Shown: one piece after another, positions 37,334-48,019 of the stretch | Numbering within the stretch: the stretch's first letter is position 1 | Layout of the letters: each line of letters starts with the position of its first letter | Program-made: the position numbers and the translations under genes | The notes under the pieces: model-generated | Seen by the model: only the letters and a program-made list of their open reading frames with translations | Told to the model about the DNA's origin: nothing | Databases searched by the model: none | DNA from: Crocinitomicaceae bacterium | GTDB taxonomy: Bacteria; Bacteroidota; Bacteroidia; Flavobacteriales_D; Crocinitomicaceae | DNA length: 48,345 nucleotides | Direction of reading: 5' to 3' | NCBI GenBank assembly: GCA_029252405.1 | Contig: JAQXBM010000015.1 | Coordinates: forward strand, 1 to 48,345

Positions 37334-40300
37334 TTGGGGTTTTGGAAAATTCTACATACAAGTGACGGCGAATTTCGGCCTTATTTTGAAAGCGAAAATA
37401 GTTTGAATCGACTTGTGCGGATTCAACTGGTTGCTACACTCATTATTGCTCCTATCTATTCCTTGCTCGTTTATTCTTCAGAGATCCCACCCGTTTATTT
37501 CTGGTTGGGAGTTTCGTATTCTATTTGCATGTTATTCTACATTGCTCTGTGCACGATAATTCCTGCGCTTAAGAATAGACTTATCATCTTTTTTATCGGT
37601 CATCTTTTTGCAATGACGATCGCCGCTTATTTTAGTTTGTTTCAAAATGGAATAGCTGAAATAGAATACTTGTGTTTTTTCGCGCTGTATAGTTTAACGG
37701 TCTTCATTATTCAACGATGGTATCCGGCGGTGCTCTACAATATTTTCGTTTTAGTATTGTTGATTTACGCGTTTCATAAAACACCAGATGCAGAAATGAG
37801 TAGCACCTTGGCTTTTGGATTGTTCGCGACCCTTGCAATGAGTTCTACGGTGGTGTTGTATTCTCGAGATAAAATGATTCATGACATTGAGAATTATTCT
37901 GAGTACTTGAAGAAAATCATCAACAACCCTGGATCTGGTTATATCCTGTTTGATTTCGATAGAAATACACCAAACATTCTCGATTTTAATACTGAGGCTC
38001 TCAAAGAATTCGGATTGCAGTCAGATTCGAAAAGTGAAATTCAAACGAAGTTTTTCTCCTATTTCAAAGCGTACGATCTCGATAAAGTTCAACAGATAAA
38101 GTTCGGGAGCAAATACGTTAAGAAGATAAAAACGCGTGCCGTTGTTCCGAACGTTTTGGAAGTTCACATCATACTCATGCGTTTGAAAACGCGGACTTTT
38201 TGGTTGGCTAAAATCAACAATGTTACTGAAGATGTTAAGAAACGACAGGAGTTAGAAATCAACGAAAAGAAATACAGAAATCTCTATTACAGAAATAAGG
38301 CGGGTGTTTTCACCATGAATAAAGACTCGGTGATTATTAATGGGAACACGGCATTCTTTTCAATGTTGGAAAACACAATCAACATTGGAGAAAAACTTTT
38401 TTCAAAGGATCGATCTGAAGATTGGGATTTAATCTTGAATACACTTGATAAAAAAGAAAGTGTTCAGAATTATCAAACGCAATTGGAGCTGGCCAACAAT
38501 CAACAAAAGACCTTGATTTTTAGCTGGTATTTAGATTCTCAAACGGGTTTGATAGAAGGATCCGTTATTGATTTAACGCATATTCAAAAAGCTTCTCAAG
38601 CGTTACGTCAAAGTGAGCGAAAGTACCGTTCGATTTATGAAGAGTCAAATGATGCGATTTTAATTTTGGATGACGATGAAATAGTGGATGTCAATAGAAG
38701 GGCGATTCAACTTTTTGGAAAATCCGAGCGCGAATTACTGAAAACAAAATTGTTTGATTTAAGTATGGATAAGTCCGATGAAAATCGGAAAGCATACGAT
38801 AAATTAAGAAAGAGGTTGGTCAACATCCGAAGCATTAAATTTAATTGGAAGTTTGATGGAAACAGTCGAGAAGTGGAAGGGGAGGTTTCGTTCATTGAAA
38901 TACAATTGGAAGATAAACTCTTTTACCAATGTGTAATTCACGATCAAACGGAACTGAATCGTACGATGAGGTCCATCGAGCAGAACAGAAAGAACCTAGA
39001 AAACATTCTAGAAAACAACCCGGAAGGAATTTTGATTGTTCACGAAGGTGAAATACTTTACAAGAATTCGGAGATTCAATTAATTCTAGGTAAAAACATC
39101 GCCTTAGACGAATTATTTATCAAAGAGAGTCAGAAGTTCTTTGATAAGTGTCTAGAGTTGCAGAAATCGTCTGGAAACCACCAAAACATCCAATTGGACC
39201 TCATGGATAGAAATGGAGAATTACTTCAGGTTGATGTGAGTTTGGTTTCGACCAATTACGAGGAAAAGGAAGCGACGCTTATCATTATTAAAGATATTTC
39301 CGTTCAGAACACCCTGGCCAAGGAAAAATTAAGAGCAGAGCTCGCAGAGGAAACAAACAAACACCTCGAAAGTGAGATAAAGGAAAGAACGAAAGCTGAA
39401 CGATTGGTTCAAGAGCAGTTCTTGAGAACCAAGGCAATTTTGGATAGCTCCTCAAATACCTTCCTACTTACACTTTCTTTAGACAAGGAAATATCTTCAT
39501 TTAATACGCATTTTGAAAAATATGTCTTCGCCGCCGCAGGATCTCACATAAAGGAAGGACAGCATTTCTCAGCATTTTTCGACGGTATATTTTCTCCAGT
39601 TCAACTGCGCTTTTTTGATGTGCTTTTTGAGAAAGTGATATCTGGAAAATCGCAGCAATACGAAGTACAGTTTGATCTTACCGACAAGAATTCTTGGCTG
39701 GAAATCTTCATGAACCCAATTTACGATACAGAAGGAAATGTAGCGGAAGTATCTATTGTGGCCCACGATGTAAGCGAAAAGAAGAAATCGAATATAGAGA
39801 TTGTTGAGTCGCTCAAGGAGAAGGAAGTAATGCTGAAGGAGATTCATCACCGTGTGAAGAACAACCTGCAAATCATTTCCAGTATTCTGAATCTTCAATC
39901 TTCGTTTGTACACGACGAAAACACCTTGGAAATACTCCAAGAAAGTAGAAACAGAATTCGTTCGATGGCTATTATTCACGAAAATCTCTATCGAACGGAG
40001 GATTTTTCGAGTATCAACTTTGCAGACTACTTAGTCAATTTGGTAACAAACTTGATCGCATCTTATCGTATTCAAGAAGTTATAAACTTAGATTCAGATG
40101 TGGATGAAATCGATTTGGTTTTAGATCAGGCAATTCCATGTGGACTGCTTGTGAATGAGTTAATAACGAACTCCTTGAAATATGCATGGGGCAAGCGACA
40201 AGAAGGTACTATTCGTCTGCAATTGAAACAGTCAGGATCGCGTGTAACACTTATAATAGCTGACGATGGTTCAGGGCTTCCAAACAATTTCGACGATATG

Positions 40301-40441
40301 AGCTCTGACACACTCGGTTTACAATTGGTTGTCACTCTTGTGGAACAGTTGGATGGAGAACTGATCGTTAATGTGAAGAATGGAACGGAATATTTAATTA
40401 AATTTGATAATCTCAAAATCCCTACTAATGGCAAAAATTAA
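37334..40441 (+). CDS. PAS-domain sensor histidine kinase, HisKA_2 type
   Basis: This is a 1035-residue protein read from a TTG at 37334. Six or so membrane spans at about residues 30-190 form a MASE-like sensor. PAS domains follow (about 195-300, 305-425, 428-545, 550-660 and 690-820), including EKKYRNLYY, SERKYRSIYEESNDAILILDDD and NNPEGILIV. The kinase core is HisKA_2 with His839 in EIHHRVKNNLQ, then the HATPase with LLVNELITNSLKYAW and ADDGSGLP. The overlap with the LytTR regulator (14 nt) makes them partners. No ATG exists in frame near the start: the upstream ATG at 37318 leads to a stop after four codons, so the start is TTG or the 5' end is damaged. Confidence 0.88.
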   Translation: MGFWKILHTSDGEFRPYFESENSLNRLVRIQLVATLIIAPIYSLLVYSSEIPPVYFWLGVSYSICMLFYIALCTIIPALKNRLIIFFIGHLFAMTIAAYFSLFQNGIAEIEYLCFFALYSLTVFIIQRWYPAVLYNIFVLVLLIYAFHKTPDAEMSSTLAFGLFATLAMSSTVVLYSRDKMIHDIENYSEYLKKIINNPGSGYILFDFDRNTPNILDFNTEALKEFGLQSDSKSEIQTKFFSYFKAYDLDKVQQIKFGSKYVKKIKTRAVVPNVLEVHIILMRLKTRTFWLAKINNVTEDVKKRQELEINEKKYRNLYYRNKAGVFTMNKDSVIINGNTAFFSMLENTINIGEKLFSKDRSEDWDLILNTLDKKESVQNYQTQLELANNQQKTLIFSWYLDSQTGLIEGSVIDLTHIQKASQALRQSERKYRSIYEESNDAILILDDDEIVDVNRRAIQLFGKSERELLKTKLFDLSMDKSDENRKAYDKLRKRLVNIRSIKFNWKFDGNSREVEGEVSFIEIQLEDKLFYQCVIHDQTELNRTMRSIEQNRKNLENILENNPEGILIVHEGEILYKNSEIQLILGKNIALDELFIKESQKFFDKCLELQKSSGNHQNIQLDLMDRNGELLQVDVSLVSTNYEEKEATLIIIKDISVQNTLAKEKLRAELAEETNKHLESEIKERTKAERLVQEQFLRTKAILDSSSNTFLLTLSLDKEISSFNTHFEKYVFAAAGSHIKEGQHFSAFFDGIFSPVQLRFFDVLFEKVISGKSQQYEVQFDLTDKNSWLEIFMNPIYDTEGNVAEVSIVAHDVSEKKKSNIEIVESLKEKEVMLKEIHHRVKNNLQIISSILNLQSSFVHDENTLEILQESRNRIRSMAIIHENLYRTEDFSSINFADYLVNLVTNLIASYRIQEVINLDSDVDEIDLVLDQAIPCGLLVNELITNSLKYAWGKRQEGTIRLQLKQSGSRVTLIIADDGSGLPNNFDDMSSDTLGLQLVVTLVEQLDGELIVNVKNGTEYLIKFDNLKIPTNGKN

Positions 40442-41186
40442 TGTTCTAGTTGTAGAAGACGAATCGATTGTATCAAAAGATATTCAGCACAGCTTGAAAA
40501 AACTCGGATATAGTGTTGTTGGTGCCGCTTCTACAGGAGAAAAAGCGATTGAATTAGCAACGAGTACGCTTCCAGACATTATTCTAATGGACATTATGTT
40601 GAAGGGTGATATGAATGGAATCGAGGCGGCCGATGAAATCCGTAAAACCTGCTCAATTCCTGTTATTTTCCTTACAGCTTATGCTGATGAATCGACCTTA
40701 TCGAAAGCGAAGATTACAGAACCGTACGGATACATTTTGAAACCATTTAAGGAAATTGATCTTCACACATCAATAGAAATGGCGATTTACAAGCACGGTA
40801 GAGAGCAAGAAGTAGTGAAGGAAAGAGATTTACTTTACACCTTGGTAACCAATCAAGAGACGAAGAAAAACGGATACATTTTCGTTAAATCGAATAGTAA
40901 ACTGATCAAGCTCAAAAACAAGGAAATCTATTACATCGAAGCATTGAAGGATTATGTGGTGATCCACACGATAGAATCACGCTACACGATTCACTCAACC
41001 ATGAAGGATATCGAGAGAAAGATGGGGAAAGAAGAATTCGTTCGAATTCACAGATCATTCATCGTTCGTTTGGATAAAATCGCGACGATTGAATACCCGA
41101 ACTTGACATTGGAAGATATCGACAAGCTGATTCCGATCGGAGGATCTTACCGAGATGATTTAAACAATCAGATCAAGCTGGTTTAA
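40428..41186 (+). CDS. LytTR-type response regulator
   Basis: This 252-residue protein reads from the ATG at 40428. The receiver domain has Asp11, the phospho-acceptor Asp55 in IILMDIML, and Lys in YILKPF. The C-terminal LytTR DNA-binding domain starts near residue 145 (IFVKSNSKLIKLKNKEIYYIEALKDYVVIH) and ends IHRSFIVRLDKIATIE. An upstream start at 40404 would lengthen the overlap with the kinase and is less likely. It is the regulator for the PAS kinase and ends overlapping the convergent rnr by 4 nt. Confidence 0.93.
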   Translation: MAKINVLVVEDESIVSKDIQHSLKKLGYSVVGAASTGEKAIELATSTLPDIILMDIMLKGDMNGIEAADEIRKTCSIPVIFLTAYADESTLSKAKITEPYGYILKPFKEIDLHTSIEMAIYKHGREQEVVKERDLLYTLVTNQETKKNGYIFVKSNSKLIKLKNKEIYYIEALKDYVVIHTIESRYTIHSTMKDIERKMGKEEFVRIHRSFIVRLDKIATIEYPNLTLEDIDKLIPIGGSYRDDLNNQIKLV

Positions 41187-43570: not shown

Positions 43571-44089
43571 ATGAAAGAAAAAGTTGAAAAAGCACTAAAC
43601 GATCAAATTAGAAAAGAAGGAGAATCTTCACAATTCTATTTGGCGATGGCATCATGGGCTGAAGCTGAAGGATTGGAAGGAACATCCAACTTCATGTACA
43701 AGCAGTCTGATGAAGAACGTTTTCACATGCTAAAATTGGTGAAGTTCGTAAACGAGCGTGGGGGGAAAGCAATTATCCCTGGTTTTGATACGCCACCAAC
43801 AGATTTTGAATCAGTATTGAATGTATTCGAGTTGTTGTTGAAACATGAAATTCAAATAACAGAAAGCATCAATGATTTGGTAGAGGTTTGTTTGAATGAA
43901 AAGGACTACCCAACGCACAACTTCATTCAGTGGTACCTTTCTGAACAACTGGAAGAGGAAGCTTCAGCACGAACAATTCTCGATAAGGTGAAATTGGTGG
44001 GTAATGACAAAGCTGGTTTATACATGTTTGACCGCGACTTGGAGACGATTACAGTTACTCCTGCAAATACTGTGGACCCAGGAGCCTAA
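43571..44089 (+). CDS. ftnA: Non-heme ferritin
   Basis: This 172-residue iron-storage protein oxidises ferrous iron and stores ferric iron in a 24-mer. Ferroxidase residues are visible at Glu18, Glu49 and His52 (DEERFHM), with later Glu/Gln in FELLLKHE and LSEQLEEE. No heme Met site or C-terminal extension marks it as bacterioferritin. Only 39 nt separate it from the cyclase gene, so the two may share a transcript, although no terminator is visible. Confidence 0.93.
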   Translation: MKEKVEKALNDQIRKEGESSQFYLAMASWAEAEGLEGTSNFMYKQSDEERFHMLKLVKFVNERGGKAIIPGFDTPPTDFESVLNVFELLLKHEIQITESINDLVEVCLNEKDYPTHNFIQWYLSEQLEEEASARTILDKVKLVGNDKAGLYMFDRDLETITVTPANTVDPGA

Positions 44090-44128: not shown

Positions 44129-47100
44129 ATGAAAAAACACCTTCTCTATATTGTTTGTGCGATTTTCTCGTTCTCGAGTGCTGCACAAAAAGAATTTCGT
44201 TTTCGAAACTTTAGCATCAATGATGGCCTCTCACAGAGTCTAGTAAGTGCAATCGTACAAGACGAAAACGGTGCCCTCTGGCTTGGAACACAGGACGGGT
44301 TGAACCGTTTTGATGGCAAAGAATTTGAAGTTTTCACGGCAGATAAAACGGAAGGGCTCGAAAGTTCATACATTAAATGTGGACTTGTTGACCCAAAAGG
44401 GAACTTGTGGTTTGGAACCAACAATGGACTCACCTTCTACAATAGAAAAACAGAAACCTTCAAAACCTTTTTCGCTAGAAAAGGGGAGGTACTTCAAATT
44501 GAAGACATCGCTTTAGGCAATAACGGTGACCTTTGGGTAGCAAGTAGTGAGAATGGCTTATTCCGGTTCAATCGGAAAACCTTCGTTTTTGAGAGTTTAA
44601 AATCCAAAGTACCTTCTCGCAAAACGACGGACGTTCAGGTAAATGAAGACGGAGTTGTTATTGTCGCCTCAACAGGAGGAATCCTTCATTTTTACAATTC
44701 GAGCAAGGACAAAACGGTAGAGTTAAGTGCAAATCAAACCCCTTTTTCCAATGTAAACCGCTTGAAACTTCAGGGGAAGGATGAAGTGTTAGTCACATCA
44801 AACAGTGGTGTTTACACGATAGATGTTGCTACGAAAACGATAAAAGAAACATTTCCAGAACTAACGAAAAAGGTTGGCAACATTGCCATTTCTGATGTGT
44901 ACAATTATCAGAATTTCGGTTGGGTGATTGGCACAAAAAATCAGGGGATTTATGTTATTTACGACGATGGCGAGATTCACCAGAGCACCGAGGACATATT
45001 TCAGAAAACATCGCTGCTCAACAACGCGATAATTTCCATTTTTAGGGATAACTCAGGCTTTTTATGGATTGCCTCTCAACGAGGACTTTCGGTCTTTGAT
45101 CCCGGAAGCAAAGAACTTCTAGGTGTTGGTCCAAGTGGAAACGAAGAAAGTGGAATTCCAACTCCAAGCGTGTGGAGTTTTGTCGAAAGTGCTTCGACCA
45201 AGTACGTTTACATCGGAACAGATAATGGAATTTCACGCTACGATAAGTCAACAGGCAAGTTTCGTCAGTTTTACAGAAAGGATAATGTAAAACAAATGAC
45301 CAACGAGATTTCGGTTTTGAGTATCGTTGAAGTAAATGAAAACCTTTTACTAGCTGGTTGCACAGACGGAACCTTTGAACTTCTTATCAGCGGCGAGAAT
45401 TATGCGTATCAAAAAATCAAATACGCATCAACAGAGGTAGAGCAAAACCACCAACGGTCCTATTCGATTGAACAGCTCGAAGAAACAACTTATTTGATAG
45501 CCACAAAAGGAGGAGCAATTACCTACGACATTTCCTCAAAACAAATGCAGGTGTTCGAGCACGATGCCACGAATCCAAGAACGACGATTTCAAAAGGAAT
45601 TTGCCGACTTGCTCACATCGATAAGAAAGGAAACATATGGCTTTCTACGAGCACAGGCGGGTTGAATGTAATGGAAAAGGAGGGGGGAAGTTGGTCCGTT
45701 CGTCCTTATGAATATAACGCTCAACTCAAGGCTGCGTCAAAAGAATACATTACCTCCATCTTTTTAGCCAACAACGGAGAGTATTGGTTCGGTACCCTAG
45801 GTTCTGGTCTCTTGAGGTGGAATCCTAGAACGAAAAAAACGAGCACGTATACGCAAGAAGATGGTCTTCCAAACGATGTCATTTATGGCGTTCTCCGCGA
45901 TGAAAAAGGCAATTTTTGGATGAGCACCAACAAAGGGTTGTGTCAATTCAATGCGAAATCGAAAAAAGCAAAAGTCTTTACCGAAATCAATGGGTTGATG
46001 AGTAATGAGTGCAATATCGGCGCTTATTTAATGGCCTCGGATGGAAAAATGTATTTCGGGGGAATCTTTGGATACAACTTCTTCGAACCCTCGGAACTGT
46101 CAAAACCTCAGCGTGCAATCGACGTCGTTTTCACAAAATTCAAATTGGAAAGCGACTGGCTGAAACCACAGGCAAATTCCATTCTACCAAAACCAATTTC
46201 GGAAATGAAAGCGATTTCATTGTCCTATCAAAAAAGAAGCTTTACGTTGCGCTTCCAGCCTTCGGATTTAAGTCACCCTGAACTAGTGAACTACAAATAC
46301 ATTTTGGAAGGATCAGATGGGGGAGAGGTGCTCATTGGAACAAGCAATGAAATTCACTTTAACGCGTTGGCGCCAGGGGAGTACGTACTCAAAGTATACG
46401 CACGACTTGGAGATGGACCGTGGAGTGAGTACCCAGCAACCTTGTCCATCATTGTGGCCGCTCCATTTTGGGAGCAACTGTGGTTTTGGATTGTTTTAGC
46501 TGTCGTTTCGGCCATATTTATCCGTTGGTTCGTAAGGAGAAGAATTGACTCCGCGCGAAGAGAACAAGTGCGCTTGGAGATGAAAATCCGTGATCGAACG
46601 CGCGAAATACAAGAGCAAAACTTGAAAATCGATCAGCAGCGCCAAAAGATTGAAGAAGAGAAAAACAAGGTTGTTCGTCAACAGAAATTGCTTCAAAAGG
46701 AGAAAGATAAAACAGAGAAATTGCTGAAAAACGTGATTCCTGCCTCAACAGTTGAAGAGTTGAAGAAGCGCGGAAAAGCGCGTGCACGAGCCTACAAAAA
46801 AGTGTCCGTTCTATTTACGGATTTCGTTGGCTTCACCAAGATTTCGGAGCGCATGAAACCAACAGAGTTGGTGAAGAAGTTGGATGTGTATTTCACGAAG
46901 TTCGATGAGATTATTGTGAATAATAACCTTGAAAAAATCAAAACGATTGGAGATGCATACATGTGTGCAGGAGGTGTGCCGGTTCGGAATAACACCAACC
47001 CAATTGATACCTGTTTGGCGGCATTGGAGATCCAAGCCTACATGGAAAAACTCAAAAATGACGCCATTGCCAACGGGAAAGAATACTGGGAACTTCGCTT

Positions 47101-48019
47101 GGGAATCAACACGGGTGAGGTAACGGCTGGAATTATAGGAAGCGAGCGATTGGCCTACGACATTTGGGGTTCCACAGTGAACCAAGCGCAGCGCATGGAA
47201 ATGTTGGGTGAGCCAGGAAAGATTACCATTTCTGGAGCAACCTTCAACCTTATTGAACCCTATTTTGAATGTACGTTCCGAGGAAAGGCACAATCGAAGA
47301 GCCGCGGATTGATTGACATGTACACGGTGGAACAAATCAAGCCAGAACTTTCCATCAAAGGACAAGGACTGCGCCCGAATGATCGCTTCAACCAGATTGT
47401 GAATTTGCACCTGTACAGCTCCATCAACTATTACAAAGCGGAGCGCCACATCATGCAATTGTTGGAGCAGCGTTTATCGAAGAATTTGCACTACCACAGT
47501 ATCGCACACACGAAGGATGTTGTAACCGCTGTAGAACGAATTGCCTTGCTTGAAGGGGTAACGGATGAAGGGTTATTCTTATTGAAATCCGCTGCGACCT
47601 ACCACGATGCAGGTTTCATAGAGCAGTACGACAAAAACGAACCAATTGGCGTGCGCTTGGCGGGAGAAATCCTTCCAAAATATGGATATACAGACAAACA
47701 CATCGATCGAATTAAGGAGTTGATTAACGTCACGACCATTCCACACAAGCCTAAAAACAAGCTGGAAGAAATCATTTGCGATGCCGATTTGGATTACCTC
47801 GGACGAGACGATTTCCACGAAATTGCCGACAAGCTTCGCCGCGAATTAAAAGAGCACGGTAAAATTGAAGGCGACAAGCAATGGGATGAAATTCAAGTGA
47901 TGTTTTTGAAGCAACACAAATTCTTTACGAAGACCGCAATTAAAACGCGCAGAAAGAAGAAAAGAGAGAACTTGAAGGAAGTTCAGGCGCGTTTGGAGCG
48001 CGATGAGTATGAGGACTGA
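44129..48019 (+). CDS. Propeller sensor / adenylate cyclase / HD-domain fusion
   Basis: This 1296-residue protein has a signal peptide (SSAAQ near residue 19), then two-component-type beta-propeller repeats (about 20-680, with LWLGTQDGLNRFD, LWFGTNNGLTFY, LWIASQRGLSVFD and FWMSTNKGLCQF) and a Y_Y_Y domain (about 690-775). A membrane span lies at about 781-803, then a coiled coil (805-880). The class III cyclase domain (about 890-1065) has metal ligands Asp898 and Asp942, adenine-specifying Lys938 and Asp1011, and transition-state Asn1018 and Arg1022. An HD domain follows (His1123, His1127, His1159-Asp1160, Asp1218/1220/1222). The basic tail ends DEYED. All residues fit an active adenylate cyclase; the HD substrate is unknown. 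Confidence 0.93.
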   Translation: MKKHLLYIVCAIFSFSSAAQKEFRFRNFSINDGLSQSLVSAIVQDENGALWLGTQDGLNRFDGKEFEVFTADKTEGLESSYIKCGLVDPKGNLWFGTNNGLTFYNRKTETFKTFFARKGEVLQIEDIALGNNGDLWVASSENGLFRFNRKTFVFESLKSKVPSRKTTDVQVNEDGVVIVASTGGILHFYNSSKDKTVELSANQTPFSNVNRLKLQGKDEVLVTSNSGVYTIDVATKTIKETFPELTKKVGNIAISDVYNYQNFGWVIGTKNQGIYVIYDDGEIHQSTEDIFQKTSLLNNAIISIFRDNSGFLWIASQRGLSVFDPGSKELLGVGPSGNEESGIPTPSVWSFVESASTKYVYIGTDNGISRYDKSTGKFRQFYRKDNVKQMTNEISVLSIVEVNENLLLAGCTDGTFELLISGENYAYQKIKYASTEVEQNHQRSYSIEQLEETTYLIATKGGAITYDISSKQMQVFEHDATNPRTTISKGICRLAHIDKKGNIWLSTSTGGLNVMEKEGGSWSVRPYEYNAQLKAASKEYITSIFLANNGEYWFGTLGSGLLRWNPRTKKTSTYTQEDGLPNDVIYGVLRDEKGNFWMSTNKGLCQFNAKSKKAKVFTEINGLMSNECNIGAYLMASDGKMYFGGIFGYNFFEPSELSKPQRAIDVVFTKFKLESDWLKPQANSILPKPISEMKAISLSYQKRSFTLRFQPSDLSHPELVNYKYILEGSDGGEVLIGTSNEIHFNALAPGEYVLKVYARLGDGPWSEYPATLSIIVAAPFWEQLWFWIVLAVVSAIFIRWFVRRRIDSARREQVRLEMKIRDRTREIQEQNLKIDQQRQKIEEEKNKVVRQQKLLQKEKDKTEKLLKNVIPASTVEELKKRGKARARAYKKVSVLFTDFVGFTKISERMKPTELVKKLDVYFTKFDEIIVNNNLEKIKTIGDAYMCAGGVPVRNNTNPIDTCLAALEIQAYMEKLKNDAIANGKEYWELRLGINTGEVTAGIIGSERLAYDIWGSTVNQAQRMEMLGEPGKITISGATFNLIEPYFECTFRGKAQSKSRGLIDMYTVEQIKPELSIKGQGLRPNDRFNQIVNLHLYSSINYYKAERHIMQLLEQRLSKNLHYHSIAHTKDVVTAVERIALLEGVTDEGLFLLKSAATYHDAGFIEQYDKNEPIGVRLAGEILPKYGYTDKHIDRIKELINVTTIPHKPKNKLEEIICDADLDYLGRDDFHEIADKLRRELKEHGKIEGDKQWDEIQVMFLKQHKFFTKTAIKTRRKKKRENLKEVQARLERDEYED

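What the first reader, a model, noticed from the sequence alone, without database searches (positions are those of the whole stretch)
44129..48019. Periplasmic propeller sensor fused to an adenylate cyclase and an HD domain in one protein
The propeller/Y_Y_Y sensor usual for hybrid kinases is joined through one membrane span to a class III cyclase with every catalytic residue in place (Asp898, Asp942, Lys938, Asp1011, Asn1018, Arg1022) and a C-terminal HD domain with its metal residues. A surface signal would thus control cAMP synthesis directly, with a possible hydrolase in the same chain. No cAMP receptor gene is in the window. Whether the HD domain breaks cAMP or another nucleotide is unknown.
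Basis: partly seen in the sequence, partly recalled or inferred. Interest (0 to 1): 0.7.

Follow-up and report, generated by a model that had tools for sequence, protein, structure and literature searches.

The report
Sensor cyclase with built-in HD hydrolase
A bacterial membrane sensor carries, in one chain, the enzyme that should make the signal molecule cyclic AMP and a second, equally conserved metal enzyme that may destroy it; relatives of the second enzyme recur joined to or beside such cyclases, but what it cuts is unproven.

Summary
The HD domain is real, although Pfam and PDB sequence searches miss it in this protein: relatives reach PF01966 (9 of 10), the model has pLDDT 95.8, and the metal set is kept in 170 HD domains with one exception at one site. 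It is an inherited protein, not an oddity: 76 of 80 fetched loci match propeller, cyclase and HD; the layout occurs in six families of the order. Some relatives lack the propeller but keep cyclase plus HD, so that pair is the core. The HD family is also fused to receiver-cyclase, kinase-GAF-cyclase and PycTM and lies near cyclase genes (9 of 60 standalone loci). Best reading: one-chain cAMP maker plus cyclic-nucleotide phosphodiesterase; HD substrate inferred (about 50%). Against: nearest solved relatives include a nucleotide pyrophosphohydrolase, and 0 of 8 inspected cNMP-binding proteins show the classic cAMP cassette. New lead: ferritin lies directly upstream in 59 of 68 full-length loci.

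The parts
44129..48019 (+). whole gene, 1296 aa
44129..44188 (+). signal-peptide-like N-terminus (residues 1-20)
   Evidence: read from the sequence; hydropathy; no signal-peptide predictor was run
44189..46456 (+). periplasmic propeller (Reg_prop) and Y_Y_Y sensor, about residues 21-776
   Evidence: Pfam; PDB relatives 4a2l and 3v9f, sensor parts of hybrid kinases
46466..46534 (+). membrane span, about residues 780-802
   Evidence: hydropathy
46532..46735 (+). long signalling helix, residues 802-869
   Evidence: AlphaFold2 model, (pLDDT falls to about 51-52 at its end)
46784..47332 (+). class III adenylate cyclase domain, residues 886-1068; D898, K938, D942, D1011, N1018, R1022
47369..48016 (+). 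HD phosphohydrolase domain, residues 1081-1296; H1123, H1127, H1159-D1160, E1171, T1202, D1218, D1220, H1263
43571..44089 (+). ferritin gene, 39-bp gap upstream, same strand: conserved neighbour
   Evidence: PF00210 139.6 bits; 59 of 68 full-length loci

Best explanation
A one-chain second-messenger device. Shown: a periplasmic propeller/Y_Y_Y sensor, one membrane span, a long helix, a class III cyclase with complete ATP-type catalytic residues, and a C-terminal HD domain with a complete metal set, inherited together across six families of the order. Inferred: the sensor sets the cyclase dimer through the long helix (cAMP on), while the HD domain is a metal-dependent phosphodiesterase that cleaves the cyclic nucleotide made next door (cAMP off), so that one protein sets both synthesis and decay. 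The cyclase-HD pair is the core; inputs are exchangeable (propeller plus span, span alone, a receiver domain, a kinase-GAF array). Odds of the parts: cyclase active about 0.9; HD domain an active metal phosphohydrolase about 0.9; its substrate cAMP or another 3',5'-cyclic mononucleotide about 0.5.
For: Cyclase residues over 100 distinct cyclase-HD proteins: K938, D942, D1011, N1018 in 100 of 100; D898 in 98 with 2 gaps; R1022 in 97, Gln in 3. HD metal set over 170 distinct domains: H1123, H1127, D1160, D1218, D1220 in 170 of 170, H1159 in 169. HD as conserved as the cyclase, 75% against 76%, sensor 44% (69 orthologues). Sensor absent but cyclase plus HD kept in L113 and L277-L281. HD fused to cyclase with three other kinds of N-terminus (own paralogue L003: Response_reg; L158: kinase-AAA-GAF; L127: short) and to PycTM, named for cyclic-pyrimidine-activated effectors, in 3 of 10 proteins scanned. 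Cyclase within 4 kb of 9 of 60 standalone HD genes; my estimate of chance is 1 or fewer of 60. Fold: class I phosphodiesterases PDE5A, PDE10A, PDE4 are among the top Foldseek matches, query TM-score up to 0.64. Genome-wide, HD goes with cyclases: 94 of 130 HD genomes have PF00211 against 111 of 265 others. No PDEase_II in the own genome.
Against: No activity was measured or found in print. Sequence profile puts the HD family nearest to 2pq7, YedJ, Lin1889 (E 3e-10 to 9e-9); class I phosphodiesterases only from E 0.005. Foldseek rank 1 is YpgQ, a nucleotide pyrophosphohydrolase, and no match reaches E 0.001. No relative passes PF00233. 36 of 130 HD genomes have no PF00211 cyclase, so the family cannot act on class III products everywhere. 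Of the 9 neighbour cases, five carry related cyclases of about 350 aa, so they are not independent, and L194's cyclase match is weak (21 bits); 0 of 19 loci of the 400-aa HD form had a cyclase nearby. None of 8 cNMP-binding proteins inspected has the G-E-x(6-9)-R-[STAC] cassette expected of a cAMP receptor. Co-occurrence is not corrected for kinship. R1022 is Gln in three loci.
Confidence: 0.5

Rival explanations
1. The HD domain is a nucleotide pyrophosphohydrolase or phosphatase of the YpgQ/YedJ kind (NTP, dNTP, AMP, or an alarmone). It would tune the cyclase by consuming its substrate or by linking cAMP output to another nucleotide.
For: Profile search ranks 2pq7, YedJ and Lin1889 first; Foldseek ranks YpgQ first; YpgQ hydrolyses NTPs and dNTPs (PMC8177086, passages). 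HD proteins occur without PF00211 in 36 of 130 HD genomes.
Against: Repeated fusion and adjacency to cyclases and fusion to PycTM point to a cyclic nucleotide. Query TM-scores of PDE5A (up to 0.64) are no lower than YpgQ's (0.57-0.59).
Confidence: 0.27
2. The HD domain is a regulatory pocket: it binds a nucleotide or metal and controls the cyclase dimer, with catalysis secondary or absent.
For: It sits directly after the cyclase domain on a conserved linker, and 60% or more of the column identity lies also outside the metal site (mean column identity 79%).
Against: The metal and acid-base set is kept in 170 domains including standalone ones that have no cyclase to regulate in cis; a binding-only domain would be expected to lose it somewhere.
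Confidence: 0.15
3. The cyclase makes a product other than cAMP (for example a cyclic pyrimidine), and the protein belongs to a Pycsar-like circuit.
For: HD relatives are fused to PycTM; PADLOC PycC models match the cyclase weakly (best 45.2 bits); no canonical cAMP cassette in 8 cNMP-binding proteins.
Against: PF00211 scores far higher (154.7 bits); K938 and D1011, the ATP-type pair (recalled), are in 100 of 100 cyclase-HD proteins; no PycTM in the own genome; an inherited gene with a conserved neighbour is unlike a mobile defence gene.
Confidence: 0.08

Closest known systems
CAPE, COMBINED AC with PDE, of Marchantia and other streptophytes (PMC5159850, search listing and passages)
   Same: class III adenylyl cyclase and a metal phosphodiesterase of the HD superfamily in one membrane chain; both activities shown there with purified domains
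   Different: phosphodiesterase N-terminal and class I there; here HD C-terminal, smaller, not in PF00233; bacterial; periplasmic propeller sensor; activities untested
Reg_prop/Y_Y_Y diguanylate cyclases GdpX2 and GdpX3 of Xanthomonas oryzae (PMC6637768, passages)
   Same: the same periplasmic sensor joined directly to a second-messenger synthase
   Different: GGDEF (c-di-GMP) output, other phylum; no class III cyclase in the passages seen
Propeller/Y_Y_Y hybrid two-component sensors of Bacteroides (PDB 4a2l, 3v9f)
   Same: sensor part, E 4.5e-81 and 2e-62
   Different: histidine kinase output instead of cyclase and HD
Class III adenylate cyclase Rv1625c/Cya and membrane guanylate cyclases such as GC-A
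   Same: catalytic domain and preceding helix; the top Foldseek matches (5o5l, 5o5k, 9bcv)
   Different: no HD domain; other sensors
YpgQ / YedJ / 2pq7 HD hydrolases
   Same: nearest solved relatives of the HD domain by profile and by Foldseek rank
   Different: standalone; YpgQ acts on NTPs and dNTPs
HD-PycTM and standalone HD proteins of Bacteroidota
   Same: same HD family, same metal residues
   Different: joined to a Pycsar-effector membrane domain, or alone

Membership tests
Class III nucleotide cyclase, PF00211 | profile match over the curated cut-off | tested here: met
   154.7 bits against 21.9
Class III nucleotide cyclase, PF00211 | two metal Asp, Asn-Arg transition-state pair | tested here: met
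   D898, D942, N1018, R1022; conserved as counted
Class III nucleotide cyclase, PF00211 | ATP-type Lys/Asp specificity pair (recalled) | tested here: met
   K938 and D1011, 100 of 100
Class III nucleotide cyclase, PF00211 | homodimer, ATP to cAMP activity | not testable with these tools
   needs purified protein
HD superfamily, PF01966 | profile match over the cut-off in the window protein itself | tested here: not met
   no hit at E<=1 (whole) or E<=10 (C-terminal part)
HD superfamily, PF01966 | profile match in orthologues and paralogues of the domain | tested here: met
   9 of 10 relatives over 22 bits, L148 just under at 21.2
HD superfamily, PF01966 | H...HD...D metal set and helical fold | tested here: met
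   the geometry of the pocket was not measured (no coordinates on hand)
Class I cyclic nucleotide phosphodiesterase, PF00233 | profile match over the cut-off | tested here: not met
   best of 10 relatives 18.7 bits against 24.8; none in the window protein
Class I cyclic nucleotide phosphodiesterase, PF00233 | [YF]-H-x3-H ... HD ... D active-site order | tested here: met
   not distinctive, since an H-x3-H is also seen in YedJ and Lin1889
Class I cyclic nucleotide phosphodiesterase, PF00233 | glutamine switch and catalytic domain of full length | not tested
   glutamine switch seen only as a passage of PMC8177086; the domain here is about 190-216 aa
CAPE-type AC-PDE fusion | both domains in one chain, with both activities | tested here: inconclusive
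   domains in one chain: yes; activities untested; domain order reversed
Pycsar (PycC cyclase with PycTM or PycTIR) | PycC-grade match and an effector gene beside it | tested here: not met
   PycC models only 45.2 bits or less; no PycTM in the genome; neighbour is ferritin

The most novel reading that the evidence does not exclude
The HD family in this protein is an undescribed family of bacterial 3',5'-cyclic-mononucleotide phosphodiesterases of Bacteroidota. It works as the off-enzyme of class III cyclase and PycTM circuits: fused to the cyclase (this protein), fused to the effector (HD-PycTM), or encoded beside the cyclase. The propeller protein is then a bacterial counterpart of plant CAPE, a one-chain cAMP maker and breaker under a periplasmic signal, tied to iron or oxidative state through its ferritin partner gene.
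Probability: 0.35. Interest if true: 0.78.

Novelty: new variant of a known kind. Interest (0 to 1): 0.55.

Why it matters
How Bacteroidota remove cyclic mononucleotides is, as far as I recall, poorly known, and the own genome shows no class II phosphodiesterase by PF02112 (other classes were not searched). If the HD domain cleaves cAMP, one family would supply the off-step for both cAMP-type and Pycsar-like circuits in this phylum, and one enzyme would hold both halves of the cycle under a periplasmic sensor. Both domains are compact and separable, so one expression experiment can decide it. The ferritin partner gives a first guess at the physiology.

Tried and rejected
Chance or mis-called HD domain: rejected by relatives, model and conservation, in spite of the failed direct searches. 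One-off fusion: rejected. Dead cyclase: no sign; of 100 only R1022Q in L076, L077, L078. Pycsar membership: not met. Spread by plasmids: only 2 of 72,556 plasmid records match the HD domain, none over 80% of it. Separate origins of the cyclase-HD fusion: unresolved; the HD tree puts the fused forms in three places (0.988, 0.972 and 0.943 supports), but the cyclase tree joins the receiver form to the propeller form (0.875), which fits one old pairing with later splits. A canonical cAMP receptor: sought, not found, in 8 of the 9 cNMP_binding places; for the ninth (L125) I read the wrong frame. Literature: searches listed no paper that from its title or abstract start describes this layout; most listed papers were not opened, and the library lacks most subscription journals.

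Rows left out: A1 used 79 of the 80 loci (L111 runs on past the usual end), A2 55 of 80, A3 76 of 97 candidates plus the window; propeller forms were thinned to about every fifth in the trees. In one search genome handles were typed. Of the 19 loci of the 400-aa form, Pfam confirmed PycTM in three genomes only.
Full report
Observation. The frame 44129-48019 (+) encodes 1296 residues. Pfam finds five Reg_prop stretches, Y_Y_Y at 715-776 and Guanylate_cyc at 886-1068, 154.7 bits. The sensor's nearest solved relatives are the sensor parts of Bacteroides-type hybrid kinases 4a2l (E 4.5e-81) and 3v9f (E 2e-62) (the organism is recalled).

HD domain. Pfam does not see it in this protein (E<=1, E<=10), nor do PDB sequence searches. 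But 9 of 10 relatives pass PF01966, and the AlphaFold2 model of 1065-1296 from 80 rows has pLDDT 95.8 and pTM 0.91. Over 170 distinct HD domains (84 fused to a cyclase, 60 standalone, 26 in other long proteins) H1123, H1127, D1160, G1162, T1202, D1218 and D1220 are invariant, H1159 is kept in 169, E1171 in 169 with one X, and H1263 in 161. A profile of the broad family (A3) finds 2pq7 at 3.3e-10, YedJ at 7.7e-9 and Lin1889 at 9.2e-9, and class I phosphodiesterases from 0.005. Foldseek ranks YpgQ first (E 5.1e-3, query TM 0.59) and then PDE5A (query TM up to 0.64); no match reaches E 0.001. The domain is therefore a metal-dependent HD phosphohydrolase by anatomy, between the YpgQ/YedJ group and cyclic-nucleotide phosphodiesterases, and its substrate cannot be read from homology.

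Cytosolic half. The model of 801-1296 (56 rows, pLDDT 87.4, pTM 0.75) has a helix at 802-869, then the cyclase and HD folds; confidence drops to about 51-52 near the end of the helix. The cyclase fold matches Rv1625c-like and membrane guanylate cyclases. Over 100 distinct cyclase-HD proteins K938, D942, D1011 and N1018 are invariant, D898 is kept in 98 with two gaps (L054, L111), and R1022 in 97, Gln in three close loci.

Spread. In 199 genomes of the order, 148 match the HD domain. Of 80 loci from genome contigs (the best 80 of 422 by HD similarity; titles name Fluviicola, Brumimicrobium, Lishizhenia, Taishania and other Crocinitomicaceae or Flavobacteriales, and some other names), 76 match all three parts. 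Of 20 regions picked from other families and short forms, 15 have sensor, cyclase and HD and 5, picked for being short, have cyclase and HD without a sensor. The full layout is thus in families f1, f3, f6, f10, f11 and f13 of the order. In most short forms examined the chain begins just before the membrane span, and in L277 it has no clear span. Mean identity to the window protein over 69 orthologues: sensor 44%, cyclase 76%, HD 75%; HD exceeds cyclase in 20 of 69. The cyclase-HD pair is under the stronger constraint.

Company of the HD family. In 395 Bacteroidota genomes 130 match. Pfam on ten relatives shows the own-genome paralogue L003 as Response_reg-cyclase-HD, L158 as kinase-AAA-GAF-cyclase-HD, L127 as short-cyclase-HD, L146, L148 and L168 as HD-PycTM, L159 and L161 as HD-YitT-DUF2179, and L156 and L157 as TPR-HD. 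Within 4 kb of 60 standalone HD genes a class III cyclase is found in nine (L175, L177, L179, L181, L184, L185, L194, L200, L220); L175 has it just upstream, L194 only at 21 bits, and five have related cyclases of about 350 aa. At up to 8 cyclases per 3-5 Mb genome I estimate 1 or fewer by chance. None of 19 loci of the 400-aa form has one. Genome co-occurrence: 94 of 130 HD genomes have PF00211, against 111 of 265 without HD (odds ratio 3.6, p 1e-8, not corrected for kinship); 42 of 47 genomes with standalone HD, but only 48 of 79 of the rest. So 36 HD genomes have no PF00211 cyclase, which limits the claim.

Mechanism. Best reading: the periplasmic sensor sets the cyclase dimer through the long helix, and the HD domain breaks the product (or another cyclic mononucleotide), giving one protein both rates. 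Shown: anatomy, residues, inheritance, company. Inferred: signal, activity, substrate. The strongest doubt is the substrate: the solved neighbours include YpgQ, an NTP and dNTP hydrolase (PMC8177086, passages). A second doubt is the receiver: nine cNMP_binding places exist in the genome, two of the eight inspected carry a clear Crp-type HTH (L117, L119), but none of the eight has the G-E-x(6-9)-R-[STAC] cassette (the motif is recalled).

Ferritin. A ferritin gene (43571-44089, PF00210 139.6 bits) ends 39 bp before the cyclase gene on the same strand. Of 68 full-length loci with at least 700 bp upstream, 59 have it directly upstream, same strand. As a control for plain kinship, the first upstream gene falls in one cluster in 54 of 64 loci, the first downstream gene in 33 of 65. 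In other families and short forms ferritin is seen in 3 of 20 regions (two of which had under 400 bp upstream): near but not adjacent in L263 and L266, adjacent in L277, where the RNase R-like gene and a propeller-less cyclase-HD flank it. Co-transcription and a link to iron are inferred.

What is known. One-chain AC-PDE is known in plants (CAPE; PMC5159850, listing and passages). A Reg_prop/Y_Y_Y sensor on a nucleotide cyclase is known for GGDEF proteins (PMC6637768, passages). PycTM receptors are described as activated by cyclic pyrimidines (PMC11224242, passages). I found no paper on this layout or on this HD family in the searches named in Tried and rejected. Hence a new variant of a known kind, with a plausible but unproven claim to a new phosphodiesterase family.

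Noticed in passing
window 43571-44089: Ferritin gene as conserved upstream partner of the sensor cyclase (59 of 68 loci).
   Followed up: yes
G000:C26, L254 3094-4791 (-), same gene as L003: Second cyclase-HD protein of the same genome, with a receiver domain; the next gene upstream on the same strand is a LytB (PF02401) homologue, no kinase checked.
   Followed up: partly
L146, L148, L168: HD domain fused to PycTM in about 400-aa proteins; frames of this size recur in many Flavobacteriia-class genomes, also without PF00211 cyclases.
   Followed up: partly
L162 3-1079 (-) and 1078-2124 (-): A 349-aa class III cyclase frame abuts an HD frame; the HD protein is of the size of the HD-YitT fusions but was not scanned itself.
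   Followed up: no
L076, L077, L078: R1022 of the cyclase replaced by Gln in three close loci.
   Followed up: no
window 37334-41186: A multi-domain sensor kinase-like frame followed by a receiver-LytTR-like regulator frame (read by eye from the translations, not scanned).
   Followed up: no
L082, L102, L111: The propeller-cyclase-HD gene appears split over frames; a frameshift in gene or assembly, left as it is.
   Followed up: no
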